Positions 30,286-64,000 of a stretch of 64,000 nucleotides of DNA are shown here, one piece after another (position 1 is the stretch's first letter; the number at the start of each line of letters is the position of its first letter). Origin of the DNA: Mytilus galloprovincialis (Eukaryota; Mollusca; Bivalvia; Mytilida; Mytilidae); contig NC_134838.1 of the NCBI RefSeq assembly GCF_965363235.1, positions 12,990,441-13,054,440 of the forward strand, read 5' to 3'. The notes beneath the pieces are model-generated. The model was not told where the DNA came from, made no database searches, and was given only the letters and a program-made list of their open reading frames with translations. The position numbers and the translations under genes were made by a program.

Positions 30286-33200
30286 TTAGTATTTTCTAAT
30301 CATCATCATGGTAGTTTTCATTGAGTAATGATACCCATGAAATGTAAACCAATCTATTCCAGTGGCATATTCATCATGATGGCCATGAAAATAAACTCCA
30401 TTTAAATTTGACAGATGGCAGCTGTCATACCACCATGCACCTTTATAAAGTACTGCGCAATTAGATCCATTACTATCATTGTCTCGGTCAAAAGTAGTGA
30501 ACTGGTGCCCATTCTGTCTTGTCAACGAATCACCTAAAATTGAATAGAGCTGTATATTGATACTAATCATCTAATAAATTCTTATATATTATTGTGTTGT
30601 TTTTTCCGGATGCTGGTTGCGTTAATGAAGGTTTAAAAAAAGTTTAAGATGAAACAAAGGTAATTAATATAACCATGACAAGACACCATTGCAAAACTAA
30701 TAAATTTGATTTTATTAACACACTCAAATTAAAGTTAAAGAGATAAATTTAGCTTGGGTGTCTCCTTCCATCTTCAGTTTCAAAAGAGCAGATAACAATT
30801 GGTTTAGATAAGTTGCCTTTCTTAGAATTTGAAATGTTTTGAATTTACCGAAAAAAAGTGTTATTTGCTTGATGATGAAGCAGAACACTATCGTTCGCTT
30901 ATTCCCGGAAAAAAATGTGTTTCCTTTTTAAAACGCAAACAGCAACTGTTGAACATGAAACCTACAATAATTAGGTATGACAAAATATTACGATGCTAGC
31001 TCAGTAACAATTCAAAGCTTATAATTCATTTTAGGTGATTCTTTATCCAGACATAATGGGCACCAGTTCACTACTTTTGACAAAGATAATGACGATCATG
31101 GATCTAATTGCGCCGTACTTTTTCAAGGTGCATGTAGGTATAACAACTGTCATTATTCAAACTTAAATGGAGTTTCTATACATGTTCAATGCTTACATGT
31201 CCTTTAGAATAAATAGAGAATCAATAGGGAATTAACCATTTTTCTTAAGGTTATTGTAGTGCATACTAGGTTTACTAACTAACCAAAAAAAGCTTTATAA
31301 AGTTTATGAATCGGCGTCACTTTTTGTGACTTATATTTAGTTTTTGAGCTCATTGTCTGTTTACTCTTTTTTAAATACATTTGCTCGTTATCAATCTCAC
31401 CGCAAATAGTGGTTTCGTATTCCCAAAAATTCTATTTATCAGGGTTTCCCCTGAGTCAATTATTTTTTTCGCCACCTCTTTCGCCAAAACAATATATTTT
31501 TCGCCATCTCCGACTTTATCATTTTACTTTGATATCGATCATTGGTTTGAGAGGGTACTTTAAAGTTGTTTTTGCGACACACGTGTTTCAAGCATAGTTT
31601 TGCGTCTTCACGTTTTCAGTTACCATGGTCCAGAAAGAAAACTGTCGTTATGAAGGAATATATTCAACAGAATGGGAACAACCACTCCAATAAAGGGTTA
31701 CACTTCAATGCAAATGGCTATATCTTTAATGAGGGATCAATTTCAAGTGATAAAACAATTGTTTTGTTATAAAATCTACTTGTTAGTAGAAAAGGGCACA
31801 CATTTATATTTTTTGAAAAAAAAAATTTTCCCAAGTAACTATATATTCATGTAAATGGTATTATTTTGTAAAAAAACAATATCCAAGGATTTTGTTACAT
31901 TTCTGGACTTATTTCTCCTTATTATCAAAGGTAAGTGGACCCCAGTTTTAGGAATGTTGTTCCAAATATAGTTCATTTTCCGTTTTACTAAAAAAAGAAA
32001 AAGAAGCAAAGCTTTTTTTTTAAAGTAAACTTTCAGTGTTTGTTAATAATTGTTTCAAAAAATTATTTTGTTTCTGAGTGTACGTCTAACATTTCATGGT
32101 CGTTAATTAAAAGTATAAAAGGTAAGAACACATGTTTTTCCGGCAATAAGTGATCGATAGTATTCTGTGACACCAACAAGCACAGAGGACGTGTTTTCGG
32201 TTAATTGTATACATTTCTAAGTCCTAAAGGAATAGCAACTCATTTACTGAATCAATTAATGACCAAGGTAAACGAAACGACTATTCTGAAAACAAATATT
32301 ATTTAATTCATTCGAAATGTTTCATAATTTGCAATGACGGTGTCTTACAGTGTACTATAAGTTATGCATTTGCTCATTGTTGACTGCCGTGTATTGTCAC
32401 ATAGTTTATTACATTCTAGTCCTTTGATATCTGATAATTAAGTATTAAATAGGCAAGCATATCATACCTTTTTAGAAATCGTGTGTAGAATTGGTCTTGG
32501 TTAAAGCATGGCTTAAATAACTTCAAACCTTTTTACCACTTGCAAATAAATTTCATTGTTTTTCACGATTATAAAATATGTACATGCTTATTTATGGTAT
32601 ATCGACGTTGTTGTTTCATTAATACCTACATAAATTGGTGTTTGATTCATTTATGTAAATTTGTTCAAATTGACTCAATATTAGAAGATGACAAATATAT
32701 AGAGTACTACTCACACTATTTTTTATTGTATATACTGTAAAACATACCTGCAGTTCCATCATATTTACTGACCAATAGCCGATAACCATTCGCCTCAGAA
32801 GATATATGGAACGAGAGATATTCTGCAAACTTTGTTACCCCACTAAAATCTGTCATCACTACCATCAATTCATGGTTTCCGTCTGATGTCAGCTCATGTA
32901 TGTTGTCGTTTCCTGTGAAATAGATACATTTAATGACATAACTTTTCAAATTAGACTATATGCCAGGTTTGTAATAACATGAGCAACACGACGGGTGCCA
33001 CACGGTGACCAGGATCTACATACCCTTTTAAAACACCTGACGTCACCCCAAGTGTTGCTTATCTCTTATTATTTTATGTTGTGTTTTGTTTATTACTGGT
33101 TGTCTGTTTGTCTTTTTCTTTTGTTGCCCGACGTTGTTAGTTTATTTTTAATCTATGAGTTTAAATTACCCCTCTTTTACAACAGATAATTAACCAATCG

Positions 33201-39200: not shown

Positions 39201-41616
39201 TACCATGGTAAAGTAAAATTTTCTAAAATATCTTTTCCATCATGTTAAATACATACAAACTACTTATTGGAGTATTGTTACTATGTTAATAAGTTAGAAT
39301 AGCTAGAATTTTTCAAATGAGAGGTCTATAACAGGGGATTCAATATACCGCAGGGGGGTCAAAATACCATGGCTAAGTAAAATGTTCAAAACATCTTTTC
39401 CAGCATGTTAAATACATACAAACTACTCATTTGAGTATTTTTACTATGTTAAGGAGTAATTACAGCTAAAGTTCTGAAATTCAAGGTCTATAGTAGGGGG
39501 TTCAACAATATACTATGGTAGGGGGGTCAAAATACCATGGTAAAGTAAAATTTTCAAAATATATTTTCCAGCATGTTAAATACATACAAACTACTCATTG
39601 GAGTATAATCACTATGTAAATGAGTTACAGTTGCTAAAATTTTTGAAATTAAAAGCCTATAGTAGGGGGTTTAAAATACCAAGGTAGAGGTTCCAAATAC
39701 CATGGCAAAGTAGAATTTTCAAAATATCTTTTCAAGCAAGTAAAAAACAGATAAAAAAATTAGAATAGCTAGAATTTTTGAAATTCAAAGTCTATAGTAG
39801 GGGGTTCAATATACCATGGCAAAGTAAAATTTCAAATATCTTTTCAAGCAAGTAAAATACAAACAAACTACTTATTAGAGTATAATAACTATGTAAAGGA
39901 GTTAGAATAGCTAGAAGTTTTGAAATGAGAGGTCTATAGCAGGGGGTTCAATATACCGCAGGGGGGTCAAAATACCATGGCTAAGTAAAATTTTCAAAAC
40001 ATCTTTTCCAGCATGTTAAATACATACAAACAACTCATTTCAGTATTATTACTATGTTAAGGAGTAATAACAGCTAAATTTTTGAAATTCAAGGTCTATA
40101 GTAGGGGGTAGATATTTTGAAAATTTTACTTCGCCATGGTATTTTGAACCCCCCCCCCCCTTAACCATGGTATATTGAACCCCCTACTATAAACCTTGGA
40201 TTTCTAAAAATCTAGCTGTTATAACTCTTTAACATACTAATTATATTAGAAGTAGTTTGTATGTATTTTACTTGCTTGAAAAGATGTTTTGAAAATGTTA
40301 CTTTGCCATGGTATTTTGACCCCCTGCGGTATATTGAACCCCCTACTATAAACCTCTCATGTAAAAAATTCTAGCTATTCTAACTCCTTTACATAGTAAT
40401 TATACTGCAATAAGTAGTTTGTATGCATTTTACTTGCTTGAAAAGATATTTTGAAAATTTTACTTTGACATGGTATTTTGAACCGCCTACTATAGACCTT
40501 GGATTTCAAAAAATCTAGCTGTTATAACTCTTTAACATAGTAATTATATTCCAATGAGGAGTTTGTATGTATTTTACTGGCTTGAAAAGAAGTTTTGAAA
40601 ATTTTACTTAGCCATGGTTATTTTGACCCTCCTGCTGTATATTGAACCCCCTACTAAAAGTCTCCAATTAAAAAAAATGATAGCCAACAAATTGTAAATT
40701 AAAATTATCTGCAATACTATTTATCAAAAACAGGGGGCTTCAATATACCGCTGGGGGGTTCAAAATACCATATGGGAAAAATGACCCCGGGGTCAAAATA
40801 CCATGCGGTATAATGACCACGGGGTCATTTTACCGCGTGGTATTTTGACACCGCTTCATTTTTTAAGGGATTCAAAATACCATATGACACCGGTCCAGAA
40901 TTCATTGTGATATTGCTGTTCTATAAACTAAAATTTCACAAATATTTCTGGAAATCATGTTCAAATGTATAGTTTTATAAATGACATACATGACATTACG
41001 TACATCATACAATTTTGGGATTTACTGTTGAACTTAAATCCAAGATGCTTGTTATACAGTTATACATATACATAGTTTTGACGCCAGTCGCGCGTTTCAT
41101 CTACATAAGCCCCATCAGTGACGATCAGATCAAAATAGTTAGAAAACAAAACAAGTATAAAGTGGAAGAGCATTAAGGTCCCAACATTAAAAAAACACCG
41201 TTGCTTCAAATACGGCTTTGCAATATATGTCTGGGATAAGAAAATCCTAAATATTTCGAATAATTAATACTTTTGAAAATAGTTAATTTATAATAAATGA
41301 CCATATAATTAATATTCCTGTCAACACCTAAGTCCTGACTACTGGGCTAGTTAAACTGTCGGGGACGAAAAATTCTCTAGCAGTGTCATCGACCCAGTGA
41401 TGTAAGTAGTTAAAACATTGAATTAGCTCATCTAGCTAAGGTGTCCCATTAACCTACCTCCTAATCATCAATTAAAAAAATGACATAACTATACAATCTA
41501 ATTTTATACGGTATACAATAAATCTAATACTGCTTTACATATACGTTGTGATACTTCATAATTAAACCTCAACCTGTGTATGACAGATTGAAGCAAAAGA
41601 ATAGTGACTTACACAT
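30286..41616 (-). CDS. Secreted LU-domain plus fibrinogen-related protein, copy A
   Basis: Nine exons join in phase into a 326-residue protein: 41613-41616 (ATG plus one base; the 5'UTR lies above), 38138-38176, 37751-37845, 36726-36797, 36155-36281, 34866-34999, 34023-34119, 32748-32912 and 30286-30533 (stop). All inner borders are GT-AG. Residues 1-18 form a hydrophobic signal peptide. Residues 23-106 hold a Ly6/uPAR three-finger domain with CxxC at 24-27, spaced cysteines at 36, 42, 48, 66, 72 and 91, and the diagnostic CC-x4-CN ending at 94-101. Residues about 113-326 are a fibrinogen C-terminal domain: PREC, WTVIQRR, EYWLGN, the calcium-site DRDND, NCA and GAWWY..CH.SNLNG are all present. 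Fibrinogen-related proteins of molluscs are secreted, usually lectin-like immune recognition proteins; that role is inferred here. Introns hold a foldback element, a MITE, repeat fragments and an inverted orphan exon. Copy B is its tandem paralogue. Expression is unknown. Confidence 0.87.
31035..31195 (+). pseudogene. Inverted orphan copy of the last fibrinogen exon
   Basis: On the plus strand, opposite to gene A, a TTTTAG acceptor at 31029-31034 is followed by sequence encoding [20 protein letters not shown], then SNCAVLF and SNLNGV. This is the start of the last fibrinogen exon. Similarity fades after about 31180 and the WWY and CH motifs are lost, so it cannot complete a domain. It lies in the last intron of gene A, only about 500 bases from the real last exon, and so forms an imperfect inverted repeat with it. 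It is best explained by a local inverted duplication. Confidence 0.8.
32985..33182 (+). mobile_element. Penelope-like family A, 3' end fragment in an intron of gene A
   Basis: It contains GGGTGCCACACGGTGAC, AAGTGTTGCTTAT and TATTTTATGTTGTGTTTTGT and ends near CCCCTCTTTTAC. This is the same 3' region as at 22.44 kb in opposite orientation. Non-coding. Confidence 0.55.
35557..35770. mobile_element. 214-bp palindromic MITE (CTGTGGATTC ends), copy in gene A intron
   Basis: The ends CTGTGGATTCATT and AATGAATCCACAG are inverted, with further inner inverted blocks (TTTTCGTGGGTACC and GGTATCCACGAAAA). It lies between exons 5 and 6 of gene A. The sister copy is at 48564. Confidence 0.75.
38230..38312 (-). 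repeat. Dispersed repeat fragment in intron 1 of gene A
   Basis: Reverse copy of the block seen at 58345-58435 and 25800-25865 (ACTGAACTCCGAGGAAAAT, ATCCTAATCAAATGG). Confidence 0.5.
38575..40894. mobile_element. 2.3-kb foldback element of about 170-bp repeats, in intron 1 of gene A
   Basis: The ends are inverted: ACCGGTGTCATATAGTATTT on the left, and the same with one change read inward from the right. From about 38930 to 40108 the unit (GGTCTATAGTAGGGGGTTCA, ATACCATGG, CAGCATGTTAAATACATACA, ACTATGTAAAGGAG) recurs about seven times in one direction, at spacings of 133 to 175 bases. From 40115 to about 40680 it runs three to four times in the opposite direction. A run of 18 C lies at 38647-38664. 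No protein is encoded. The pivot is near 40110. It accounts for the greater length of intron 1 in gene A (3.4 kb against 1.7 kb in B). Confidence 0.8.
38647..38664. repeat. Poly-C tract, 18 bases
   Basis: An uninterrupted run of C near the left end of the foldback element, rare in such A+T-rich surroundings. The exact length may be affected by sequencing error. Confidence 0.9.
41078..41290 (-). repeat. SINE-like dispersed repeat in intron 1 of gene A
   Basis: A long reverse copy: GACGCCAGTCGCGCGTTTCA, TCAGTGACGATCAGATC, CAAATACGGCTTTGCAATA and GGGATAAGAAAATCC. Confidence 0.6.
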
Positions 41617-41786
41617 TTTCTCCGACTACCTATTTCATTCAAGACTTCATGCGATAAGCCAGTTTAATAGAGATAAGAGAATACACATTAGTATGCATGT
41701 ACAATTCGATAGATTACAGCGTACAATAGGTGTTGCTTATTATTTTCATTTTCATTTTCAAACTTCCGATCCTTTTCCAGTTTATA

Positions 41787-41807
41787 CGTCAAATTGTCAA
41801 TGGATCA
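41787..41807 (-). promoter_or_regulatory. Conserved upstream block of fibrinogen gene A
   Basis: A 21-base block, about 175 bases upstream of the start codon of gene A, matches the block at 58704-58724 upstream of gene B at 20 of 21 positions. Its core on the plus strand is CGTCAAATTGTCAATG. The surrounding 200 bases are also related but more diverged. It could be a promoter element or simply part of the 5'UTR exon; the transcription start is not visible. Confidence 0.4.
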
Positions 41808-42356
41808 AAATAACATGTCTTATTCTGTGAATAAGTCTTCTCAATATAAGGTGCCTTAACCGTGGCTGTGTTTATACATAGAAGTACGTATAGAACCTTA
41901 TGATCAGGAACATTAGATTTATAAATGTTGAAACTGATAACACAATTAAAGATAATGTACCTTCCAAATAATTTGGTTAATGCTAATCCACATTTTTTTC
42001 ATATTTCACGCAAAAGATACTGAAGGACTTGTTGAAAATAAAATATATTTTCTTGTAAGAGGTTGTGCAATAAAAAGATGAATAACTCACAAGATTCGGG
42101 TCTATGTTTACAAAGAAAGTATAAATTCAAACTTATGTTCAGAGCTATCAAGAAAATGTGACACATTCATCGGAACTCCCTTAAAATCTGCATCTACTTG
42201 AAAAAACAAAAAAATAAATGCAGTATGTATATAAGTCACACATTGGCCTTATCTGATTTCCGTTTACAAATCAACCGGTAAAAGTTATATTGCCGGCTTA
42301 TGAAGACGTTTCTAATACACGAAAAACCGTCAGAATTCAGTATCGTAAATCTCTGT

Positions 42357-45440: not shown

Positions 45441-46604
45441 TTACTAATATACCGTCAAAATTTATTATTTTTATAAAGATTAGCAAAATTTAGCATCCTA
45501 TTTTACCGACCACACTTAAGTGGGAAATTCCTTTCCAATGCGTTCAGGTTTTAATACGTCCTACGGTTTATCAGGAATATGAAATTAATTCACTAATTAA
45601 TCTAAAAAAAAACCTTAGAAATTATCACTCATAATACTGTAACTGCATGAAGAAAGACACAAATGAATTTTTACCATCCGATAACGGTAAAAGAAAAATA
45701 CCAGACACTTTGTAAGTAGTTTATTATACCAACTAAGTTTATGGGAAAAGGGGGTGGTACTATGTTGTTGGTATTTTTCTATTTGTTATGACATTTCTAT
45801 CACGGAAAAGTGATAATGTTTTTAACAATTTTAATTGCATCGATTGAAATATTATTTTTATATATATATTTTTTTTAATGAAATCACATTTTTTTTTTAC
45901 AGATAATCATGATATATACAGCCTATCATATATTGAATTTTAAAAAACAAATTCCCAAATCGGCAACTAAAACTATCAGACGAATTTATTTTTATTTTAT
46001 GCCTTGAATCATGTTATCCTCCGGGTTGATTCTTCGAAAGAATGACATATCGTACTGAAAGAAAATAACTCCATAAAGGTATATAAATGTAATCAAAAGT
46101 GATGAATTAAATCCATTTTTTCATGTTATCATGGATACTTTTCAATCACATTTCATAACATTTATAGTGTCTCACGCACGTTAATAAACTTATAAAATAT
46201 AACATTGTGTTTTAATTAATTTTATTTCATTTGATATGTAATTTGAATTTATGAAGTCTTTCTGTACTTTAATTTTGAATATTTATTATTTCTAAGAAAA
46301 CAAATACAAATAGATCATTGTTCAATATTTTACATATCTCATTAAAAAAATATAGAATATTAACAGAAATGTCATATGATATTTAAGACGTGGTAAAAAT
46401 TTCGTCAGTTAGTTTAGATACAGATATATATCGTTCAGATAAACCATTGATTGGATTATGTTAAATTAACCTTATTAATCGATAATTGTTATCATATTTT
46501 TAATAGAATAACTGTATTATAACGTTAGTTGTTAGTTTAATGCTTTTGAAAAATGTAATTGAATATGACTTTTTTATAAATTTAGATAAATTGTAAATTA
46601 TTAG
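45441..46604. other. Non-coding spacer before the Mab-21 pseudogene
   Basis: Strongly A+T-rich, no gene. The last 100 bases (from about 46560) align with the 5' flank of the intact gene (from about 61470), so the duplication includes upstream DNA. Confidence 0.5.
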
Positions 46605-48196: not shown

Positions 48197-48563
48197 CAAA
48201 ATAAACTGCAAACTTAAAATAGTTTTAAATTCCTAAAACAGACAGTGACATACTCTAGTGATAAAATTGATTGTTATGATGATTATAATGATGAACTTTA
48301 CATATTTTCTGAAATAATACTGAATTAATTCTTTGGGAATTGACAATTAAGGGTTGATATCTAAACTTGATAACAACCCTACGAATATCGCACAAGCAAT
48401 ATATTATTACCGGCCTATATAAAGAATACACGGTTTCCATTCTAGACTGGTTTGGACTGTACATGATATGATGATGTGAGATAATAGGTCAGGAGTTCGA
48501 GTCTGCGTTCATCAACTACTAACAGTGTTGTTTGGTAAATATATTGCTATTGTACTTGTATTA

Positions 48564-49330: not shown

Positions 49331-52300
49331 TTAGTAACTTCTTATCATCATCATAGTAGTTTTCATTGAGTAATAAAATCCGTGCCATGAATACCAATCT
49401 ATCCCAGTGGCAAATTCATCATGATGGCCATGATAATAAATTCCATTTAAATTGGATTTGTGACAGCCTCCATACCACCATGCACCTTTATAAAGTACGG
49501 CGCAATTAGATCCAGATCCGTCATTATCCCGGTCAAAAGTAGAGAACTTGTACCCATTTTGGTTGGTTAAAGAATCGCCTGAAATTGAAATGAGAATAAT
49601 GTGTTGCTGATTTAGCATCTTATTATTTTCTTATACATGTTTTTAGCATGAATAATATATATATAATATAAATAAACGTGAATACGTATACTGCAATCAG
49701 TTAAGGGCACCTGACAGAGAGGTCACTGCTTTTGGTTAACATATCCCATATGCCACGCAAAATAAAAATGGGTGAAAAAAATACTCTCTGTTTTCAAACG
49801 AGCTGACAATACAATGGAAAAATTCAAACAATAAACCACAGTATACAAAATAGGACAAAGAACACTAAAGACTTAGTAACACGAGCCCTAACAAAAAGCC
49901 GGAGATGATTACTTGTGATCATGACGGGCTCGCAGATACAGCTCCACGTATGGTACCCATCGTTTTGCTCATGAAGTTAGAATCCTGTTATAAGTTTTAT
50001 CATGTATGTGTCATTCGGGAAAAACAGCACAGGATTGTGGTTACAACCATTACATTGTCGTCATCTATGAAACAGATATTCCATAAAGGTAATTCAAATC
50101 GATATCTGAAAAATTCGATTTTATATACACATAGAAATGACTCTTATCAACATGGTATTACTTGAAATAAAGATATAACATGCCTGCAGTTCCATCATAT
50201 TTACTGACCAATAGCCGATAACCATTTGCCTCAGAAGACACATGGAACGAGAGATATTCGGCAAACTTTGTTACCCTACTAAAATCTGTCATCACTACCT
50301 TTAATTCATGGTTTCCATTTGCTGTCAGCTCATGTATGTTGTCATTTCCTGTAAACATTAGACATATATGAAAGTATTAAAGAAATTAACATAATTAGTG
50401 CATTTCTAAATCTAATGATCTAAGAAATAGGGGTAGTCATGAACCGTATGGTTACAATTTCGAACTTGTCCAAACGTTTCGTCACATCAAGGAGAGTTTT
50501 TGAGATACCAAAGAAATAATCAAATCCGTATGCCAACTAATGACGTAATGACAGTAATCTAAAAACAAACAAAAGATAAACAGTAGTCAACAAAACAAAA
50601 CGCCGAAGACTTAAGATTGAGCAACACAAATCCAACCAGCAAATCGCCCAACTTACAGGTAAAGTAACAACAAACAATATATGCAATGGCGAGATAAAGG
50701 AACAAACATTCAAAGACAATCAATCAACACAACTCAAAAGTATCTGAATGTTTAGATCTGATCCGTTACAAAGACGAATATTCGAATAAATTTCAGAAGC
50801 ATTGAATTGTCTTAAATGTTCCTATATCAAAATTGGTTATATTGACTTGTTGAAAACAATTAAAAAATTGAAAATCGTTTAACCGTACTACTGTTGACAA
50901 CGCGCTATCCTTTTTATTTTGAATTACTATCAAACTGGGTTTTAAATGTTAAGGTTTGAGCGTTCGAAATACTTAGTAAAGGTAATTTCTCAAAGGTTCT
51001 TCAGACGCACGACACTATTAAAGTGTTATGTTCAATATCGACCACTGGTTCTATACCACTGCTGGTGACCGTAATTCTCCTAGGGAATAGTTGTATCAGT
51101 AGTCAATGATTCTGAACTAAGTTTACTTATTACTATTTTGCTAAAATTCAACGTTCATGAATTTATTTTATTTTAAGAAAAGAAGGTTCCAACTCGCTCT
51201 CTCAGGCAAAGAAGATATTACAATTTTACCGATTCTCTTTAGGTACATTTTAGGTCATGTGGGTCCTCACCCATAGAAGTATTGTTTTCATCTCTGGCTT
51301 TCAAATGTTCAAAAAGAGGAACGAAAGATACCAGAAGGACAGTCAAACTCATAAGGTTCCAAATGAATGTAGGTTAAGAAAGGCGCTATTAAGAATTCAG
51401 AAAAGAGTTATTTTCATCTATCGACAACTCATAAAATATCCAACTAATTTATCGATAAACTCGTCATATATCCCTACTTTAACTTTTTATTCATTTTTCT
51501 ACAAATGATTATTCAAAATCCCTCAACTCTCTTTGTGTGTGTGTTTTTTTTTGTGTGGTTTTTTACCTAACCAATACTCTTCGTTAGCATGTCCAAATCC
51601 AGTTTTGTATGCTTGCCAATCTCTATAAAAATTTACTGATCCATCAATTCGTCGTTGAATGACCTGAAATAATGTAATCGAGTTAAATGATGTAAAGTAA
51701 TAAAAGGAGTTATATATAGTTTACGAAACCCATATCGTGAAAAATGAATTTACAACTTAAAAAGCTATCTCCATTCATTGGTGTTCGTCACCTTTTTGCT
51801 GAGTTTGAGGGTGTTTGCTTCATTATTTCAAAATAAACAAGTTTAAAAAAAAAACTGTTATAAATAGATAATATTAAAAAAAAAACAGAATCGATCTTGT
51901 TTCAATATATAATCAATTAAAAGTTTAGCAGGAAACTATTTTTATATATTTAACATATGCTCCTTGTTTTTCTTTAAAAACAAACTATGAAAAAAAACAA
52001 GGATTTTATAAGATTTTCAAAAATGATTTTCAAAACTTTATGCAATAAAGTTACGAAAAGAAAACTAGGAGTTGCCTGGTAAACGTTTTATTGACACTAC
52101 ATGAATCAAACTAGAGGATTCCGAATATCTGACAAAAGAGTAGCATGACAAACAAACTTTAACATTAAACGTTACCTAAAGTATAGTCAAATAGATAGGT
52201 AATATTTCGTTGAATTCAAATAAAGTCTCGTTATATCTACAAATTGAAAACTCACGGTCCAAGAGCGCAAACTTGAATCTAAATAGCAATAGACAGATAC

Positions 52301-55300
52301 CGGATGCTGCATCTGTCCATATGGGTAAATTGTATGGACTCCGCTTACAGATAATTTTAAGTCGGCACATTCTCGTGGAAGTGTTAATGCTGAAAAGATT
52401 TCTGAGATGTTTAATATAATCTATGTCATGCTTTATATTTATGTAACTATCAAAATGCATCTATATTATCTATATTACCAATTGGGATAAAATATCATTT
52501 CTTTAACAAGTAACAAAATATTGCCTCCTAGTTTCAAGATATATGGTTCTGTCAGTACCAAGTATAGTTTTACATATTTAGGGGTGATTCCATCAACAGA
52601 GATGGACTTTCTGATTTAGTTTTAGATCAGGATGAAAAATGTGAAATAAAAGGAATCTCAGTGTTAATTCGATAATTTTGCAACAAACACAAATAAATAT
52701 ACAAGTAAAACAAGAAGATTTGTGTTTATACATACATATATTGATGTTTGGAACTGAAATGTCCGAAAATTGGGTTAAATTAATTGTTTCTTTTTCTTTT
52801 CAGATTTATCATCTCTATATACGAATAATTTCCAAAGTCGACAATAAATTATATTGGCCTATGTGTATGTCATCAATTTAAAACACTAAATAGTGAACTT
52901 GAGTTATAAAGATAAACAGTGTACTTACGTAATTGACCAGAACTTGAGCAATTTAAAATGTCATTACACAGTCTGGTATCGCAGCAAAGTGCGCATTTTA
53001 CATGGTGGCCTTCAGATCGGCGACCAAGTATCGAACCAGCCGAATTACTACAAGCCTTTTTCGAAACAAAAAGAAATCAGTTATATTGACTTTTTGTTTA
53101 ATAAATACGTTTTTTAACTAATTGTAAAAAAATGTACCTTCTTATGGAGATTCTGGGTTTTTTTATATGCTGTTTTTCTTAGTTCTTTTATTTGAGTTTT
53201 AACAATCTACCGAGCGAAAGTACTAATTTAACCTAGCCACATTTTATTCGGCCTTTACCAAGTCCCTAACGTCGACGGTTTTCGTATGTCATATTTCAAT
53301 TGTTTTGTTATATGTTGGATTTTGATTTATATTTGATTTTATTGGTTTTGTTAAAATTATTCACAAGGTTTACAGAAAGAACAATCTAGAGTTTTAATTT
53401 ACAGTTCAATAAGTTCATATATATATATACCAAGCTTTAAATAGTGTATGTCAAATGCGCTTATCGTCTGCAAACGACTCATAAAGAACGCTCGAGTCAA
53501 CGAAGTTAAAAAGCAAAATTTAAAAAATACGAAGCTAAAGAGCATTAGAGACCAAAAGTTTCGAAGGTTTTTGCAAATTAAAAAGTAGTCAACATGTTTC
53601 TGGAGTGTGTCTATTATTATAGATTGTTTTTTGTCATTTAGAATTTTTCTCGTTATTTTTGTTGTCGGGTTGCTCTGTCGTCTACGAATGTCCAACATAT
53701 CTTTAAATTCATACAAAATGTGAACATAAGTACTGAGGCTGATATAAAAAGCATCCTTATTTGAATATAGGCATTTTCATACCGCAAAAAATGTCGTAGC
53801 ATTTGTAAATTAATCCACCATATACAACACCTGTATCTATACTTCTAAAGAAAGAGAGCGATTTCATAGAGCCGCATCTCCTCTGAAACCTTACAAAGTC
53901 GGAAATATTTGTGAAGTGACGTATAAATGAAGCGTTTTGTTATTCCTTATTTTGACTTTGAAACAATCTTTTTTCCATAGAAAACGCCAATTTTTGAAAC
54001 AATAACCCACTTCGGAGACCGTTATCGATCCGTGTCTTATTCGCTTTCACGCATGCTTAGTCGACGTATTGTCCTCGAAATTTAAAAACTCTTTGTTTCA
54101 ACACTTGCCCAATTGAATCGCGATTTCGCGGGCATGTTATATTTACATAAAAGAATGAGATGTGGAAGAATTATCAAATGAGATCTGGTATAATTGCCAA
54201 AAAACGCAACTTTCCAAAACAGTTCAAATGACGTTTTGACGTAAGCAAGTTTATTGGGGTCTTTTTCATCTATTTAATATTACAGTTTAATATACCAGTG
54301 ATGAGCCACATCCGTAATCGAATTCTTCAGCACCAGATTCGGTAACAAAGTTGTGCATAAAGCAGACCTGAAATAAAAATGAATATTACTTTCAATTATA
54401 AATAATATCTAGATGCTCTCAGGAGCCTGTTTCGCTCACCTGTATTAACTGTGGTTTTTGAAATTACGTAAAATATGGTTAAATCATTATTAATAGTATT
54501 AAATACCCTAATAATGATTGAGGACAATTTGGTTTAATTTGACGCAGTAGTTAAATTAAAAGCAGAAGAATTATGATTTTGTTTTTACAAAAATTACTAA
54601 TAAACTGCAGAAATTTACTTTAAACGACAATAAGACATTTGTTAGATGACAATAACAATCAAAACCAAGGAGAAAACAAAGACTCGTAAAACCAAAAGAC
54701 ATTTACATCAACAGTTATAAATAATAAATAAAAACAACACAAAATCCACTAAAGACCGGGAGTGAAATCAGGTGCTCCGAAAGGGTAAGAATTTTCTGCA
54801 CCGTATACGGCAAAGGTTTTAATGTTTTTTTTCTGTAAATGTAAGGGCAGATAGATGTTAACCTGATGAACATGTTTACCACATGTCAGATTTGATCTAA
54901 ATGCGTTAGTTTTAGAGAATTAAGCCAACAACTGCATTTTACCTAAGTTCTATTTTAGCCTTGTCGGCCATGTGGGTTGGCCTAATGCTAATGTGTTCAA
55001 GTTTGGTTAAAGGAGTAGGTCCTGTATGGGGTGGATTTTGGCCTCAATTTTCAGGTTCATCTGACGAAAGATTTTCGACACTTTTTAGACACGAAAGTGT
55101 CTATTTCAGTTATTTCAATTAGTTTATGTGAAAGATCCTAACTGATTTAGTCATCAAAAACGCTACGATTCAAGCTTAAACATGAAAATCTATCAAATAT
55201 GCCAAAAAATGTCACTTTTCAGATGTTTTTTGTCAAAAATAAAAGTGGCTGCATCCGTGTTCATCCTGAACCTTTATATATGTTATGTATTATCATCAAA

Positions 55301-58300
55301 TACAACTTATATTTCAATATTAAGAATGAACACAAATGCGGCCACTTTCATTTAAGACGGAAACCGTCTAAAAATTAACTAAAATGCTAAAATTGTGAAG
55401 ATTTCAGTAATTTAGCATGACTTAAGGATGCTAGTACCCGATATATGTGCATTGTTTTGTCAAAAACAGCCCATATTTTTGTATCAGAAGTATACTTCTT
55501 TCCAATAAATAACTAAAAGTTTACATTTAACAATTTTGTAATTCAATTGATAATTTTGGTCATATTGACTTATTTTCTAGAACTTACTTTGTTGAATATT
55601 ATTGCTGTTACAGTTTATCTCTATCTATAAGAATATTCAAGTTAATAACAAAAAATGCAAAATTTCCTTTAAATTACCGATTCTGAATCTGCAACTTAAC
55701 AACAAGTGTGTTTTTCATCTGAAACCCTGCATTTTACTCCTTTCTTTTATATCTAGCCATTTCGGCCATGTTGGTTGGATAGAACACATTATTAAAACTA
55801 AATATCCTAAGACTCATTGTGGTCAAGTTTGGATAAATTTTGCCCAGTAGTTTCAGAGGAGAAGATTATTGTAAAAGTTAACGGACGACGACGACGGACG
55901 ACAGCGATGGACGCCAAGTGATGAGAAAAGCTCACTTGGCCTATTGTGCAAGGTGAGCTTAAAATATATTATCAACTTTCTTGTGATCAATTTAAGTAGA
56001 CATAAAAGAAAACAGAAGAGACTGTATCTTCGCTTTCATTCTATGTAACCAACAGCCATTTACATTTACATAATTTACATTATTCAGTGAAAGGGCGTTA
56101 TATAGGTAGCGGAACTTGACGTTAAAGGTAAATTACCGCTTCTTTTAATTCACCTGAACATGTTCCCGTGTGAAATCAACTTGATAAGAATAAAAGAACA
56201 ATTCGGACAGGAAGAAAGGGATAATTAGTATCCAAAGGAATAATACATGAAAACTACTCTGAGTAATTAATGTTGTTAATGTTGATAAGAATTTAAAACA
56301 TAAATAAAATATAACTAACCTCGCCATCATTACAATGTATACGATGATTACACTCGCCAACGGTTTTAACTCCACTGCATGACCAACATTCTAGTTGGCA
56401 TTCTATAATGAGAAACACAAACAAGAAATCATATACTAAAAAGGAGGTTCTTGTCACATACAATTCCATTGTTTACATTTGTAAAATAAAAACAATAGGA
56501 ATAGGATAAAGATATTTTTTAACATGTTTATTTACAATTTCGGAATTAATCTTACCAGTTACGCTTTTGTTTAAAATTTACTTCATATCGTGTTTCCGTA
56601 CATATTACAGGTACATATTAATCATCGTGCTTATTTGCAAGATCTCAGCAAAACTATATATTTTGTCAACAATATATTAAAAAAATAAATCATTCATAAC
56701 AATTTCTGTATTCAGTGCAGACAAAATAAAAGCACTAGCTATACAAAATTATATGAATTCATAACTCAACTGAAATGAAATGATTATTTTATTTGATAGT
56801 TAAGCGTTATATATCTTCAATAAATACATACCTATAAATGATATGAGAAACACAAAGACCGACCATTTGACTGAAAAATACAGTAAATCTCACAACCAAT
56901 ACTTTTAAATAAAATATATCAATAGACCCCAACAGATTAGAAAGAATAATGATACTTGGGACTTTCGGACGGATGACATAAAGCGTGTTCTTTGCAATTA
57001 TTATTAGAAATAGTCTTTTTTACAGTTCAATCGGTTACGTTATTATACATGTTTATGTCTTAACATACTTGTATGCATAGTTTTCTTACCGGCGCAAAAC
57101 AGTTTATATTTTCCTGTCTGACGAATAAGGTTACATGGCAATGTAGCCGTTGTTGAGACAGTGGGATCTAAAATGAACTACAACCCTGCTCTTTTCCGCA
57201 AACTAAGATTAAAAATACCTTTTAGTGAGCTATACTATAAACTGCCCCGACATGACAATATGAAGAACAATAAAAATATAAACGAAAAATAAATATTTTA
57301 GACCTTAATCAACAACAACAGCAGGTATCCGATTTTAAAGATCACAAAATACTTATTATTTGGAACAACAGTAACACGTTTCGTGTACTCATCTGTGGAA
57401 CTAAAAAATCAAAGCTGTTGGATTAATAGATTGATTGATTAATTTGACTTAAAATTAGGAATGAAATAACCAATCAGTAATTAGCAAATATGATGGTCCT
57501 CAATGTTCTTCATTTTTGTATTTCTTTCGAACTTTTGAACTTTTTTCAAACGTTACTGTTGACTCTTTTTTCAGACGAAACGCACATCTGACGTACACAA
57601 TATAATACCTGGTATCTCTGACCAGTCTATTGACAATTAAAGCGCACTTAATATTTGACCAGAAATGCAGGGTTTTATTTTTGGTAACATATTTAGTTCT
57701 TACTTCTGGTTACGAAATTTGAAGTAACGTTTTTTTCAGATTTTATTCGAAATAATTTGAATCTGTAATGAACATTCTGACAGTAAGAAATTTCCCAATA
57801 TTCATTTATCCTAGTGAACAAAACGTAAACATACTGTTTGTAGTATTGTTCATGTTTATTACGGCAATTATCTTTAAGTACTGGTCTAAAATTTAACATA
57901 ACATTTTACTGACAACATTTCTGGAAAAAAATTATTTGTGTATTGTTTTCCATGACATAAGCTGTAATCGTACATCATGTAATTTTAATATTTGGGTGAA
58001 ATTGAAGAAACTTGGTACTCTGGAACATATTCAAATCGATATATTTAAGCACACAGCTATGCTACTGTATATTGAATACATAAATGCAAAGTTTCTCAAA
58101 TCTTGTTATGAAATTATGGAAATGTGATATTATTGCAAAAGTAACAACTATCTTCAAAATACCAGAAAGGTACAGGTCACTGAAGGGCTTTCAATAATGA
58201 AGAATAAACATACCGTATATATATATAGTAAGTCAAAATGAGTTCAACTCTCCGTAAGTCTAGGATAGTAGTGTAACAGCACAATATAAGAGTATTTAAT

Positions 58301-58531
58301 ATTTTTATAAAGCTATTGAATTAGTTTAGTATAGTTAAATATTTAATCATTTGATTTTACCATTTGATTAGGGACTTTCCGTTTTAAATTTTCCTCGGAG
58401 TTCAGTGTTTTTGAGATTTAATTTTTCAATTTTAATATAATGCTTTACATATACATTGGTGTACATCATAATCAAACTGGAACCTAAAAATGTACGATAT
58501 ATTGAAGGAAAAAGCATATTGACTTACGCAT
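49331..58531 (-). CDS. Secreted LU-domain plus fibrinogen-related protein, copy B
   Basis: Nine exons give 322 residues: 58528-58531 (ATG plus one base), 56832-56870, 56320-56402, 54296-54367, 52929-53055, 52256-52389, 51567-51663, 50184-50348 and 49331-49578 (stop). Exon lengths equal those of copy A except exon 3, which is 12 bases shorter (83 against 95). The order is the same: signal peptide (residues 1-14 hydrophobic), LU domain with CWSC and CC-x4-CN, then the fibrinogen domain with WTVIQRR, EYWLGN, DRDND and GAWWY..CH.SNLNG. This copy keeps the usual RRIDG where A has RRING. The intron after exon 8 begins GC instead of GT (CAG|GCATGT), a known minor splice class; copy A has GT at the same place. 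The likely role is extracellular recognition of sugars or acetylated groups, inferred from the family. A divergently oriented ankyrin-Mab-21 gene starts 3 kb from its 5' end. Confidence 0.87.
49790..50095 (-). mobile_element. Penelope-like family A, 3' fragment in the last intron of gene B
   Basis: Diverged copy of the 3'UTR: AACGAGCTGACAATACAATG, GGAGATGATTACTTGTGATC, ATCTATGAAACAGATATTCC. Non-coding. Confidence 0.5.
50560..50665 (-). mobile_element. Small Penelope-like family A fragment
   Basis: ACAGTAGTCAACAAAACAAA followed by GAAGACTTAAGATTGAGCAA and CAACACAAATCC resembles the 3'UTR middle block. Weakly supported because of divergence. Confidence 0.35.
53440..53590 (-). repeat. Diverged SINE-like copy in an intron of gene B
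   Basis: Reverse copy with GTCTGCAAACGACTCATAAA, AAAGAGCATTAGAGACC and related blocks. Much changed. Confidence 0.4.
54416..55968. repeat. 1.55-kb composite dispersed repeat in intron 3 of gene B
   Basis: The right end GAGAAAAGCTCACTTGGCCT, then GCAAGGTGAGCTT, and the left end AGGAGCCTGTTTCGCTCACCT-like block look like the borders of one element. The middle (55060-55410) matches the repeat at 26.79-27.33 kb. A fragment of the family A retroelement tail lies at 54668-54820. A GACGACGACGACGG simple tract lies at about 55880-55900. No protein was recognised. Confidence 0.45.
57500..57625 (+). repeat. SINE-like copy in intron 1 of gene B
   Basis: It contains CAGACGAAACGCACATCTGA and AATACCTGGTATCTCTGACC. 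Intron 1 of gene A has its own, different SINE-like copy, so both were gained after the duplication or one was lost. Confidence 0.5.
58345..58435 (+). repeat. Dispersed repeat fragment in intron 1 of gene B
   Basis: TTACCATTTGATTAGGGACT, CCTCGGAGTTCAGTG. Same family as 7190-7265 and 25800-25865. Confidence 0.5.
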
Positions 58532-58703
58532 ATTCTCAGACTTCCTCTTTTATGTAAGACCTAAAGCGATAAGTCGGCTTTAATGAGATAAGATAAAGCA
58601 CACAAGTTTATATGTAGAATTTGGTAGATTATAACAGACTGTAAAACGGTGTTGATGGTTAAGAAAACAAATTGTTGAAACCTCGGCCATATTCCTGTTC
58701 ATA

Positions 58704-58724
58704 CGTCAAATTGTCAATGAATCA
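58704..58724 (-). promoter_or_regulatory. Conserved upstream block of fibrinogen gene B
   Basis: This is the counterpart of 41787-41807, also about 175 bases upstream of the start codon, with one base different in 21. The equal distance in both paralogues, although the flanks differ more, suggests a constrained promoter or leader element. No TATA box could be assigned with confidence. Confidence 0.4.
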
Positions 58725-58739
58725 TAGCTTCACAGGAGG

Positions 58740-61470
58740 GTTTTTTTTTGCGAAAAGGTTTTCATCAATGCAAAGTCGATTGAGTTGTGGCATTGTTTGT
58801 ACGTAGAAGTTATTGTGAATGCTTATGGTATCTATTTTATAGAAATTGCTCAAGTAGTTAATTGGAAATATTTTTTTGAAAATTATCGATTTTAGTTAAA
58901 ATGATATGACTTTTTTTTTAGTGGGAACTAACTTTTGTCCGATGACTGTAGTTGGCATGTTTAGTTTCTCTTACTTTAAATCATAAATATTCATTATTTC
59001 TTTGAAACGTATACCTAAATATCATGATTAATAATGTAATTATTATGTATTATAATCTTTACTTTTCTTTTTGATTCATGAAATGATTTGCTTACATTAT
59101 AATAAAAAATAAACAGTACAAATGTACTGACAAATTGTCTGTTTATGTGGTATTCTACTAATGAATGATAAAATAAGCTAATGAAATACTCATTCGTTCA
59201 ACTAATTTAACAGGCACTTTTATTTTCAATTTCTATTTAGGTGGCGTAGACATAGTATATCCATGGTGCGTCTATTTAGATAGTGCTTGGAACAAGCCTA
59301 TTATTGTTATCACCTGATCATGAAAATATCACCTGACATAACACAAAGCCCTTTGTGGCCTCGTTTAATATATTTAAACTTTAAAAAGGCTTTGCTTACA
59401 AGGAAGAAATTTAAGTTAGAAATGGGATTGGCTGTGTGTTTTTATGCATTGCGGTTTGAGACGTCTGGACGTCTTCTTAAATACTAGGAAAACGAAGGAG
59501 AAGGTATGTATATAAACTGATCATAGATACCAGGATTGAAATATTATATTTGCATTAGACGCGAGTTTCGTCTACAATAGACTCACTAGTGATGCTCAAA
59601 TAAAAAGACGTTAAAAAGACCAAATACTGTATGATTATATGGCAGGTTGATTGAAATTTAATGTTTAAAGCAATTCTCAACACATACTTCTTTATTATTC
59701 TAAAATATTGTAGTTAAACTGAACATTGGTGCTATTTCTTATTGAATGTGGATTTTAACAGATTGTTTTGTAATCGTCAATGAGGCAACAACCAAATGAC
59801 GAAAACAACTAAACGATATCCAGAAGGATATAAACAACCTCCATTTTTATTGATAGAATTACCATCATTTAACAATTATAAAGAATGAATAGCTTTTCTA
59901 AGATGTGACTAACTTCATCGACACACAATTTAAAAGGTACAGATAATCATGGTTCATATGTTTTTTTAAATGCCAATGCTATCGGATAGAATATCTCTTC
60001 AGTTTTAACATTTTGTTATAATCCATAGTAAACTAATACAAGTGTTATATGTTTAACTGTTTTCTATTGAAAACAAACATGTGTTTTAGAGTTAACGGAA
60101 CAAAATAGAAAATGTGTACACTTAGATTTTAAGTTAAACCTCTTTCTTCAGAGTTGATTTATGTCTTACACACTACAGATAATATTCATCATTTCCAAGT
60201 AATGGTTAACATAATTTAAGCTAAATATAAATGGAATCATACATCTTCGTTTTTGAGACAATCGGGATTTAAAAAATGTTGGTTTTTTTGGTTAAATTAA
60301 AAACAAGGTCGAAACTTTTATGAATATAATAACTAGTGAAGATTGTACAGATGTTCTTTATTTATTCGTCCTGAAAAATCTATTTTAAAAAAAAATAAAT
60401 GTTTCCAGAAAATATTTAACCAAAATAAATCGCTATGGTCAACAATAATGTGTCAAAGAGACAACAACCCGACCACAGAAAAACAACAGCAGAAGGTCAC
60501 CAACAGGTCTTCAATGTAGCGAGAAATTCCCGCACCCGGAGGCGTCCTTCAGCTGGCCCTTCTTTAAGTATTGACAAATGCTTGCATGTGTCTTCAATGC
60601 AAAGGCAGCTTAAATTGATACTAGTAATAAGTGTAGTTAAGATTTAAAAGAAGGGGGAGACAAGCTGTTGATAATGTAATTTGTCATAGTTTTAAAACTG
60701 ATTTTTTTTTACAACAAATGCCACCATATTTGCAAACTGATTAATGATTCAAATCGTTCATTGATTACTTGTTCCTTGTAAAATGAAAAACTAATCAGAA
60801 TCAAAGATTGAGTTAGGCATCTGTGTGTTTCATCATATCACAGATATTTGTTTTCATTGAAGAAATTATTTTATTATTGGTCAATTCAAATTAAAGCTTG
60901 CCTCTTTGTGATCATATCTGATTGTTTCGAAGTAAACCAATTACAGAGCATTTGCTATTTATACCAAGTTTGTTTCACATTTGGTTGGTTGTTTAAAAGA
61001 GACGAAAAAGTAACTGTCAATTTGAATATAAAATCAATTAACAGTGACCAAAAGAATTCGGCATTCTTAAATTTATGATAACTTTGCTTTTCCACGCATA
61101 TAGAATAAAGAAAAGAGAAGAACAAAAATTAATGTTATTCTCCTGAACATTTGTTCAGTGTGAATGTTAAGAGAATAATACACAGCGGAAATTTTTAAAT
61201 GTATCTGCACCGTTTATTTACCCAGTGTAATTTTTTTAGAACACTGGACCAGCAATACTACCTAACACAAAACATGATACATATTAATATAAACTATCAA
61301 GTGAAGCTGGACTAGACATGAACAAATAAAATACATTTACAAAAAGATATTCCTTACATTAATAAGATCAGACCATGTTAAGCTAACGTGGGTTATTGAA
61401 AATAGTTAGCATATATATCATTCATGAATAAGTGTAAACAAAAATATACATTATTATGTTTTGTGAATTT
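58740..61470. other. Intergenic region between gene B and the ankyrin-Mab-21 gene
   Basis: A 2.7-kb divergent spacer that must carry both promoters. It contains a SINE-like copy (59520-59620, reverse) and the retroelement-tail fragment at 60435-60565 that repeats 17757-17880. The remaining sequence is A+T-rich with no exon recognised. Confidence 0.45.
60435..60565 (-). repeat. Retroelement-tail fragment, second copy
   Basis: GTCAAAGAGACAACAACCCG, AACAGCAGAAGGTCACCAAC and GGAGGCGTCCTTCAGCTGGC match 17757-17880 with few changes. Non-coding. Confidence 0.55.
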
Positions 61471-61523
61471 TTTTTTAGATAAATGTAAACCCTTAAAGTA
61501 TAACTTGATGATACAACGGTACG

Positions 61524-64000
61524 ATGGCAGAAGAAGAGATATATAACCGTGTCGACAGCAGTTTTAGTAAAGAAACTATATTACATAAATCTATCAAAGA
61601 TACTCGACCAGATCTTCTTCAGTGCTGGTTCGCCTCTCAAAATTGGGATGATGTTAATACCGGTAATAGATGGAGCCAAACTCCCCTTCATTATGCTGCA
61701 ATAAAAACAAACACATATGTCCTAGAAGTACTCCTACAGGTACCTAGAGTTGATGTCACGAAGCAAGATTTAAATGGATACAATGTTTTACACAGTTTAA
61801 TTTACAACATTGTTGCTATAGACGATTGGCAAAGAACTATTCAAGTCCTACTAAGTTTAGGAATTGATATAAATCAACAAACTAAGCATGGATATTCCAT
61901 ACTGCATTTAGCAAGCAGAAATACTATCCCTCCACGTGTCCTCCGGTTTATACTCGAGTCGTGCGCTGGGTTGAATGTAGCTATGATAAACAAAGATGGG
62001 GAAAATTTCCTTCATTCTTTTGTACACAGTATAAACAAAACAAGCCCTGTGTCGGATGAATTCAAAGATAGATTTGCTCTTCTTGACGACATTGTTAGAG
62101 GGAAAGTATCATGTTGTGCTGAAAAGAATTTGATAACATTGTTGAAACAAAGAGATTTAAATGGTACAACCCCTTTTCTTCTGATAATAAACCATTTCGA
62201 TCGATATCGAAACGTAAATGCCATCAAGGTTTTGCGGAAAATGGCTGTGGCTGGAGGATGCTCAACGATAGCTGACAATCTAGGAAACCATCCAATTCAT
62301 TATGCTATTGCTTGCTTGCGCAAAACACCTATTAAGATGCTACAAATGCTAATTGAAACCGGAGCTGATGCTAATGCTAAGAACATATATGAGCAATCGA
62401 CTGCCCATTTAGTGAGAGTTGATAGCAAAGATTTAACCTTTGAAAGAATCAAATCAATTGTTAATGTAATGAAAACAACAGACATTGATTTTAACGCGTC
62501 TGATAAGTGGGGTTGTTTTCCGTTAATGTATATTAGTGCATTTTACGATTCCGATTGTCTCCCCTTTCTGAATGATATAACTTCAACATCGACCGTTCTA
62601 AATGCAGTAGACAACAGTGGGTCGTCTGCATTGCATTATGCTGCCTACCACGATTCTGGCACTTTTGTCAATTTGTTGATTCAAAATGGCGCAAGAAATG
62701 ACATCAAAGACAAACTAGGAGAATCTCCTATCGAAACAGCTAAACGTCATCTAAGAATAAGTTCAGAGGAAGCTCTTCTTGAAAGCTCAACATCTGAAGA
62801 GCTAAACGACAAAAACCAACAATTTTTGGAAAATTTTAAGTCATTGCAAACATCCAAAAAAATAGAAATGAACATGGACCAATTTGTTGAAGAACTTCTT
62901 AATCACAAATATAGAAATGCCGGAGAAGAAGAGGAACAAATTAATTCCACTATCTGCTTCTTTGTAGAATTACTATGCAAACAAGTCTCAAAATATGACC
63001 CTAGATTTGAAATGACAGTTTTTCAGTCAGGTAGTTCAAAAGAAAAAACAAAAGTAAATGCTCCAGACGAATTTGATTTTGTCCTTTGTTTAGATAAAAT
63101 CAGCGAATTTTGTGACATCGAAGAAAGAAAAAGTACCAAAGAGAGAAAAAGTCCTAGAGAAAAGAAAAGTCACAAACAAAGAAATACTCCCATCGAAAAA
63201 ATGAACAATAATGTATTGAAGGTGAAACTTATTGAAGGCCATAAAGACGTATTAGAATTTTTTGATGAAAATGGAATTTTGATTTCACCGCCAATATTCA
63301 TGTACCTCCACAAATATTTGAATCAAGCCTTACATGATCCCAGTTTATGGAAGAATGATGAACTCCGTAATCTATGTTACGTTTTTGAAATGCCATTCTT
63401 GCAAAAAGACATGAAAACGACAGTGTTTATGGTTCGTCTTCTATGGCTTGGTTGTAAACATAAACAACTCAGGATTAAGATAGACATGGTTCCTGCCATC
63501 AGAAAAACTGCTTGGTGGTCAATTGACCCTTATTCGTTACCAATGATGACTCAAAAGATCCATGATGCTGGCTGTCTGCTTTTACTTGACACAACTTCCG
63601 ATGAGCAATCGTTCACCTCCGAATATCTCAAAGAATTCATAGTGGATACAATTGATCGAATAAGACCAGTACAAACCAATTTACGCGTCTCTACGGCGCC
63701 AGCAGAAGTTTGTCTAATGGAAACTTTCCCTCAAATAGTACGCGATAGTTACGCGCTTGCGAAGCTTTTCGTTGACATCTGCAATGTAACTGACATAAGT
63801 AGCTATATGCTGAAAAACTGCACATTTCATGTATTACAAGAACTTCGATGGAATCCTAATATGCCAGATGACATTTCTAAATTACCATCCCTTATGGAGC
63901 TTACAGTGCAGATATTCATGAAGCTTTTAGCCTTCAACAAAACATATTTTTTGCCTAGATTTTTCCTACCTGAAGTCAACATTTTTCCTCAAGACCAAGA
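61524..64000 (+). CDS. Ankyrin-repeat plus Mab-21/cGAS-like nucleotidyltransferase (cGLR-type), 3' end beyond window
   Basis: A single open frame runs 825 codons from the ATG at 61524 to the window edge without a stop. The N-terminal half (about residues 45-400) carries degenerate ankyrin repeats; TPLHYAA near 50, SILHLA near 128, HPIHYAI near 255 and SALHYAA near 368 are the clearest. The C-terminal half is a Mab-21-type nucleotidyltransferase: GSS at about 503-505, the acidic pair in DEFDF (E516, D518) and a third acidic residue in KIDMVPAI (D654). In cGAS and cGAS-like receptors these three carboxylates bind metal and make cyclic dinucleotides that signal to STING, so the enzyme may be active (inference). 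A lysine- and arginine-rich stretch, rich in KERKS-type repeats, occupies about residues 533-556 inside the domain. A poly-T tract and AG at 61470-61479 suggest that the coding exon follows a 5'UTR intron. No signal peptide is seen, so it is probably cytosolic. The mirror-image neighbour is fibrinogen gene B. Confidence 0.85.
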   Translation, partial: MAEEEIYNRVDSSFSKETILHKSIKDTRPDLLQCWFASQNWDDVNTGNRWSQTPLHYAAIKTNTYVLEVLLQVPRVDVTKQDLNGYNVLHSLIYNIVAIDDWQRTIQVLLSLGIDINQQTKHGYSILHLASRNTIPPRVLRFILESCAGLNVAMINKDGENFLHSFVHSINKTSPVSDEFKDRFALLDDIVRGKVSCCAEKNLITLLKQRDLNGTTPFLLIINHFDRYRNVNAIKVLRKMAVAGGCSTIADNLGNHPIHYAIACLRKTPIKMLQMLIETGADANAKNIYEQSTAHLVRVDSKDLTFERIKSIVNVMKTTDIDFNASDKWGCFPLMYISAFYDSDCLPFLNDITSTSTVLNAVDNSGSSALHYAAYHDSGTFVNLLIQNGARNDIKDKLGESPIETAKRHLRISSEEALLESSTSEELNDKNQQFLENFKSLQTSKKIEMNMDQFVEELLNHKYRNAGEEEEQINSTICFFVELLCKQVSKYDPRFEMTVFQSGSSKEKTKVNAPDEFDFVLCLDKISEFCDIEERKSTKERKSPREKKSHKQRNTPIEKMNNNVLKVKLIEGHKDVLEFFDENGILISPPIFMYLHKYLNQALHDPSLWKNDELRNLCYVFEMPFLQKDMKTTVFMVRLLWLGCKHKQLRIKIDMVPAIRKTAWWSIDPYSLPMMTQKIHDAGCLLLLDTTSDEQSFTSEYLKEFIVDTIDRIRPVQTNLRVSTAPAEVCLMETFPQIVRDSYALAKLFVDICNVTDISSYMLKNCTFHVLQELRWNPNMPDDISKLPSLMELTVQIFMKLLAFNKTYFLPRFFLPEVNIFPQDQ

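What the first reader, a model, noticed from the sequence alone, without database searches (positions are those of the whole stretch)
30286..64000. Tandem duplication of a divergent pair: LU-fibrinogen gene and ankyrin-Mab-21 gene
The order is fibrinogen A (-), Mab-21 pseudogene (+), fibrinogen B (-), Mab-21 gene (+). Each fibrinogen gene is head-to-head with a Mab-21 copy, and the upstream DNA is partly shared. Secreted recognition proteins and cGAS-like receptors are both immune families that expand in bivalves. A linked, co-duplicated pair, perhaps sharing a bidirectional control region, would be a candidate two-part defence cassette: extracellular sensing plus intracellular second-messenger synthesis. 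The pairing is seen; the joint function is inference.
Basis: partly seen in the sequence, partly recalled or inferred. Interest (0 to 1): 0.8.

Follow-up and report, generated by a model that had tools for sequence, protein, structure and literature searches.

The report
Duplicated lectin–cGAS-like gene pair, probably coincidental
In a mussel-like genome a secreted lectin-type immune gene and a neighbouring cGAS-like enzyme gene were probably copied together once, after which one enzyme copy died; no sign was found that the two genes work as a team.

Summary
Two intact LU-like-fibrinogen genes (A 30286-41616, B 49331-58531, both -) alternate with a broken ankyrin-Mab-21 copy (46581-48295, +) and an intact one (61524-64166, +, ending outside the window). 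Fourfold-site divergence of the fibrinogen pair (35 of 106) and of the Mab-21 pair (42 of 117) agree, so one segmental duplication of both genes is the simplest history. The main shared upstream block holds the fibrinogen start-codon exon plus ~270 bp. The cassette reading is not supported: a third, older, broken fibrinogen copy left of the window has no recognisable Mab-21 partner; among 161 fibrinogen and 158 Mab-21 hits listed genome-wide, only this locus has a pair within 30 kb, no more than chance gives; 0 of 16 other ankyrin-Mab-21 loci lie within 1 Mb of a listed fibrinogen hit. The lists are incomplete. The Mab-21 protein keeps the full cGAS-type triad and is probably an ANK-cGLR, an architecture already described. 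Best reading: ordinary birth-and-death duplication that caught two unrelated, expanding families. Expression and other mussel genomes could not be tested.

The parts
30286..41616 (-). LU-like-fibrinogen gene A, intact, 9 exons (41613-41616, 38138-38176, 37751-37833, 36726-36797, 36155-36281, 34866-34999, 34023-34119, 32748-32912, 30286-30533); hydrophobic leader, LU-like cysteine module, fibrinogen C-terminal domain
   Evidence: spliced by hand with GT-AG borders, open frame of 322 aa; PF00147 E 5e-67, PF00087 E 0.03 below cut-off
41527..41885 (-). conserved 5' block of gene A: start-codon exon (ATG+T, donor GTAAGT from 41612) plus about 270 bp upstream; matches only two places in the genome
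46581..48295 (+). broken ankyrin-Mab-21 copy (pseudogene): protein matches to aa 30-189 and about 698-864 of the intact gene remain, with stops and frame shifts; centre replaced by a repeat (47243-47806)
49331..58531 (-). LU-like-fibrinogen gene B, intact, 9 exons (58528-58531, 56832-56870, 56320-56402, 54296-54367, 52929-53055, 52256-52389, 51567-51663, 50184-50348, 49331-49578)
   Evidence: PF00147 E 5e-68; best solved relatives ficolins
58437..58810 (-). conserved 5' block of gene B (ATG+C, donor GTAAGT from 58527, about 270 bp upstream)
61524..64000 (+). ankyrin-Mab-21 (cGAS-like) gene, one open frame of 881 aa that ends at 64166 outside the window; GS, E-x-D and the third Asp of the NTase site all present

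Best explanation
A single segmental tandem duplication, most likely by unequal crossing over, copied a stretch of about 15-18 kb that happened to hold two divergently oriented neighbours: a secreted LU-like-fibrinogen lectin gene and an intracellular ankyrin-Mab-21 (cGAS-like) gene. Afterwards both lectin copies were kept under purifying selection, one Mab-21 copy decayed, and introns and intergenic DNA eroded. The lectin probably binds microbial or damaged-tissue ligands outside cells with its ficolin-like domain; the ANK-Mab-21 protein probably makes a cyclic nucleotide inside cells when it meets its ligand. Shown: anatomy, similar age of the two duplications, intact frames, catalytic residues. 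Inferred: unequal crossing over, both protein functions, and that the two genes act independently.
For: Collinear duplication. Fibrinogen A-B dS 0.437, dN/dS 0.21 over 322 codons; fourfold sites 35 of 106 changed, against 42 of 117 for broken against intact Mab-21; JC 0.435 and 0.488, difference 0.05 with bootstrap range -0.18 to 0.29. Introns of A align over 634 of 10362 bases (6%), the spacer over about 269 of 4964 (5%), so the spacer has fared like introns. The third copy C is older (dS 2.2 to A, 1.6 to B, against 0.38 for A-B, exons 6-8). No excess of fibrinogen/Mab-21 neighbours in the listed hits, none within 1 Mb at 16 ankyrin-Mab-21 relatives. Clusters of tandem paralogues, attributed to unequal crossing over, are described for oyster C1qDC lectin genes (PMC6835236, abstract seen).
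Against: The genome-wide lists are incomplete: 150 of 1678 fibrinogen candidates and 150 of 543 Mab-21 candidates were scored, so further pairs may be unlisted. Fourfold counts are small and were taken slightly differently for the two pairs (both sequences for the lectins, the intact gene's frame alone for Mab-21), so two separate duplications of similar age are not excluded. The intact Mab-21 has stayed next to lectin B throughout, which linkage alone also explains.
Confidence: 0.8

Rival explanations
1. Two-part defence cassette: the lectin and the cGAS-like enzyme are kept together, share a bidirectional control region and are induced together on infection.
For: Head-to-head order twice, probable co-duplication, retained 5' block, both families linked to immunity in bivalves (PMC9980059 passages; PMC5549309 passages).
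Against: No other pair within 30 kb in the listed hits; third lectin copy without a recognisable partner; lectin A intact beside a dead Mab-21; 3-5 kb between start codons; the block is the lectin's own start region; Mab-21 promoter unlocated.
Confidence: 0.06
2. Two independent local duplications: lectins multiplied by their own tandem events (C, then A/B) and Mab-21 was duplicated separately into the gap.
For: A lectin duplication did happen earlier (copy C), and no Mab-21 remnant is seen beside it. Intergenic homology is essentially limited to the lectin's first-exon block.
Against: Similar fourfold divergence, and the alternating order A, Mab, B, Mab with the same orientations would need a coincidence.
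Confidence: 0.12
3. Assembly artefact: the two alleles of one locus placed in tandem.
For: The Mediterranean mussel genome is rich in hemizygous regions (PMC7653742 passages).
Against: dS 0.44 between copies, largely unalignable introns, one dead Mab-21; far beyond allelic divergence (recalled to be a few percent).
Confidence: 0.02

Closest known systems
Bivalve fibrinogen-related proteins (FREP/FReD family), ficolin-type fibrinogen C-terminal domain
   Same: complete Fibrinogen_C domain, hydrophobic leader, local tandem copies; best solved relatives are ficolins 1 and 2
   Different: the N-terminal module is a short cysteine-rich LU/three-finger-like unit on three exons, not collagen, coiled coil or immunoglobulin (the latter recalled as usual for the family); the LU-fibrinogen order recurs at 10 of 11 other LU hits with E up to 0.001 in this genome. 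The papers listed by searches show none by title or abstract start
cGAS-like receptors (cGLRs) with ankyrin repeats
   Same: Mab-21 NTase with GS, E-x-D and third Asp; family profile matches MAB21L1, cGLR1 and cGAS structures; ankyrin-cGLR fusions reported (PMC9980059 passages)
   Different: a lone deep branch, at most 36% identical to the other 22 rows aligned here; activity untested
Tandemly duplicated C1qDC lectin clusters of bivalves
   Same: tandem duplication in a secreted lectin family, attributed to unequal crossing over (PMC6835236 abstract)
   Different: here an unrelated neighbour gene was copied along and one copy died

Membership tests
Fibrinogen-related protein (Fibrinogen_C, PF00147) | fibrinogen C-terminal globular domain over its cut-off | tested here: met
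   A 226.4 bits, B 229.6 bits, cut-off 22; profile positions 2-219 and 3-220 of 221
Fibrinogen-related protein (Fibrinogen_C, PF00147) | secretion signal at the N-terminus | tested here: inconclusive
   [16 protein letters not shown] / [16 protein letters not shown] read after joining the first exon; hydrophobic by eye, no predictor run
Ly6/uPAR (LU, three-finger) domain | PF00087 Toxin_TOLIP over its cut-off | tested here: not met
   15.5-16.2 bits against a cut-off of 21.2; the cysteine pattern, ending CC-x5-CN, looks LU-like (recalled), so I say LU-like only
cGAS-like receptor (cGLR, Mab-21 family) | Mab-21 NTase domain homology | tested here: met
   the protein itself gives PF03281 18.1 bits and PF20266 17.8, both below the cut-off 24.1, but its close relatives on C14 (E down to 3e-69) pass the PF03281 cut-off; the family profile matches MAB21L1 1e-59, cGLR1 2e-52, cGAS 4e-41 (that profile includes 6 canonical Mab-21/cGLR-type rows, which helps it)
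cGAS-like receptor (cGLR, Mab-21 family) | complete metal-binding triad as in cGAS, unlike MAB21L1 whose third residue is Gln (PMC4897736 passages) | tested here: met
   E80, D82, D218 of the aligned domain; third position Asp in 22 of 23 rows, Gln only in L009, the MAB21L-like row
cGAS-like receptor (cGLR, Mab-21 family) | ligand-activated synthesis of a cyclic nucleotide | not testable with these tools
   needs enzymology
Two-gene defence cassette | recurrent or conserved neighbourhood | tested here: not met
   within this genome only, on incomplete lists; other genomes not testable
Two-gene defence cassette | co-expression from a shared control region | not testable with these tools
   no expression data

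The most novel reading that the evidence does not exclude
The 3-kb divergent spacer at 58532-61523, with its retained 0.27-kb block, is a shared switch that makes a secreted LU-like-fibrinogen lectin and an intracellular ankyrin-cGLR rise together on infection, so that the pair is an emerging extracellular-plus-intracellular sensing unit found only at this locus.
Probability: 0.06. Interest if true: 0.6.

Novelty: new member of a known kind. Interest (0 to 1): 0.27.

Why it matters
It shows that adjacency of two large immune families is expected by chance in such a genome and should be held against a null before a functional link is proposed. Side results of some use: a LU-like-fibrinogen lectin subfamily with recurrent architecture, and a solitary ankyrin-cGLR with a complete catalytic triad that could be assayed.

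Tried and rejected
Shared block as a dispersed repeat: rejected, only two genome matches with either copy as query (that search skips very common words). The match 38216-38293 / 58426-58350 is a dispersed repeat (the same stretch also hit 5 of 8 control stretches) and was not counted. Mab-21 remnant beside the third lectin copy: none in the 85 kb left of 45000, best E 2.3; since that copy is old (dS about 2), a long-dead partner might not be recognisable. kB, ISRE and TATA strings in the spacers: no kB or forward ISRE site common to both; TATA-like and reverse ISRE-like strings occur in both at unaligned places. Structure prediction of the NTase domain was queued but had not finished at the last look, so no fold evidence is claimed. 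Neighbour test: 150 rows plus 11 extra; 149 rows plus 9. I left out rows that were other exons of the same local genes, second pieces of one gene, and rows matching ankyrin repeats only; lengths of three chromosomes (C9, C11, C13) were rough guesses in the null. The 16 loci are the rows that grouped with the window gene in the tree; six further places with weaker or partial matches (C6:87.0, C7:38.5, C7:12.4, C12:64.5, C14:47.97 and C14:48.06 Mb) were not in that count, but were in the list. The tree of 23 domains left the window gene's exact place unresolved. No search of other mussel genomes or of expression data was possible.

Full report
Setting. I extended it by 40 kb left and 60 kb right.

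Observation. A self-comparison shows collinear matches between 30-42 kb and 49-59 kb and between 46.6-48.2 kb and 61.5-64 kb. Hand splicing gives two complete genes on the minus strand: A 30286-41616 and B 49331-58531, nine exons each with matching exon lengths; B uses a GC donor after the exon at 50184-50348. The first exon is ATG plus one base before GTAAGT in both copies, which completes a hydrophobic leader. The proteins, 322 aa, are 265 of 322 identical. Pfam finds Fibrinogen_C at 226 and 230 bits, and only a sub-threshold Toxin_TOLIP match over the cysteine-rich N-terminal part. The best solved relatives are ficolins; the stretch around DRDND and CHxSNLNG aligns without gaps. The Mab-21 gene on the plus strand is one open frame of 881 aa, 61524-64166. 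The other copy keeps two ends and has stops and shifts.

Were both genes copied together? Fibrinogen A-B: dS 0.437, dN 0.092; fourfold sites 35 of 106 different. Broken against intact Mab-21, by the intact gene's frame: fourfold 27 of 68 and 15 of 49, together 42 of 117. JC distances 0.435 and 0.488; bootstrap range of the difference -0.18 to 0.29. One event is the simplest account, though the sample is small. Of 10362 intron bases of A, 634 align to the matching introns of B; between the genes one block of about 269 of 4964 bases upstream of the lectin ATG aligns clearly, and a 46-bp match at E 0.01 is borderline beside a control best of 0.034. So the spacer has eroded like introns and shows no large conserved control region. 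The block matches only the two places in the genome, with either copy as query. On the Mab-21 side homology starts at TTTAG|ATAAAT, which looks like a splice acceptor, so its promoter is not placed.

A third copy. At window -14080 to -420 lies another LU-like-fibrinogen copy on the same strand. Exons 6-8 are open, the two halves of exon 5 lie about 0.6 kb apart, and the leader exon was not found; the four-base start exon is too short to search. In exons 6-8 dS is 0.38 for A-B, 2.2 for A-C and 1.6 for B-C. No Mab-21 remnant lies left of 45000 (best E 2.3), though one this old might not be recognisable. The lectin array is thus older than the pair duplication.

Is the pairing more than chance? 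I took 161 listed fibrinogen hits and 158 Mab-21 hits. Within 30 kb there are two fibrinogen hits with a Mab-21 neighbour, both at this locus; rotating the Mab-21 positions gives a mean of 0.88 and at least two in 22% of 2000 runs; within 100 kb the only pair elsewhere is on C12, 58 kb apart. Sixteen other ankyrin-Mab-21 loci have no listed fibrinogen hit within 1 Mb; the nearest is 1.16 Mb. LU exons at E up to 0.001 were found at 20 places, nine of them here; of the 11 others 10 have a fibrinogen last exon 3.5-6.4 kb downstream on the same strand, and the eleventh has its nearest listed one 19 kb away. LU-fibrinogen is thus a repeated architecture, and none of those listed fibrinogen hits has a listed Mab-21 hit within 100 kb. 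The lists hold only the best-scored candidates (150 of 1678 and 150 of 543), so the test covers the better copies only.

The enzyme half. In an alignment of 23 NTase domains of this genome the window protein has G67, S68, E80, D82 and D218; the third carboxylate is Asp in 22 of 23 rows and Gln in L009, the MAB21L-like row, as in MAB21L1 where Q169 stands there (PMC4897736 passages). The profile finds MAB21L1, a cGAS-like receptor and cGAS structures, helped by six canonical rows in it; as a single protein the match to PF03281 is below cut-off, while its relatives on C14 pass it. In the tree it is a lone branch, at most 36% identical to any other row. Ankyrin-bearing cGLRs and more than 200 cGLRs in some bivalves are reported in PMC9980059 (passages), so this is a probable member of a known kind; activity and ligand are unknown.

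Reading. The best account is a segmental tandem duplication with decay of one of four genes, in a genome where both families are large. The joint-function idea is not excluded, because expression and other species were out of reach, but the tests available here came out neutral or against it. A paper search for cGAS-like receptor with fibrinogen and mollusc gave 0 papers, and two searches bearing on a LU-fibrinogen architecture listed 7 and 10 papers, none of which shows it in a mollusc by title or abstract start (papers not opened). The library holds only openly licensed papers.

Noticed in passing
window -14080 to -420 (L019-L020): Third, older LU-like-fibrinogen copy on the same strand; exon 5 split by inserted DNA, leader exon not found.
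   Followed up: yes
31024-31184 (+): Inverted fragment of the fibrinogen last exon inside the last intron of gene A, 83% identical to A's own exon.
   Followed up: no
50176-50183: Gene B has a GC donor (GCATGT) where gene A has GTATGT.
   Followed up: no
2502-3950 (-) and 22853-23290 (-): Reverse-transcriptase-like frames; the first matches RVT_1 below its cut-off, the second is 67% identical to part of it in DNA.
   Followed up: no
38991-40675: Dense array of direct and inverted ~150-170-bp repeats inside the first intron of gene A.
   Followed up: no
window -30149 to -28869 (L017-L018): Open frame with a COR-A domain (49 bits, cut-off 35), perhaps a Roco-type gene left of the lectin array.
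   Followed up: no
G000:C14:47.65-48.06 Mb: Array of at least seven closely related ankyrin-Mab-21 genes.
   Followed up: partly
G000: C9, C11, C13: LU-fibrinogen architecture recurs: 10 of 11 LU hits (E up to 0.001) outside this locus have a fibrinogen last exon 3.5-6.4 kb downstream.
   Followed up: partly
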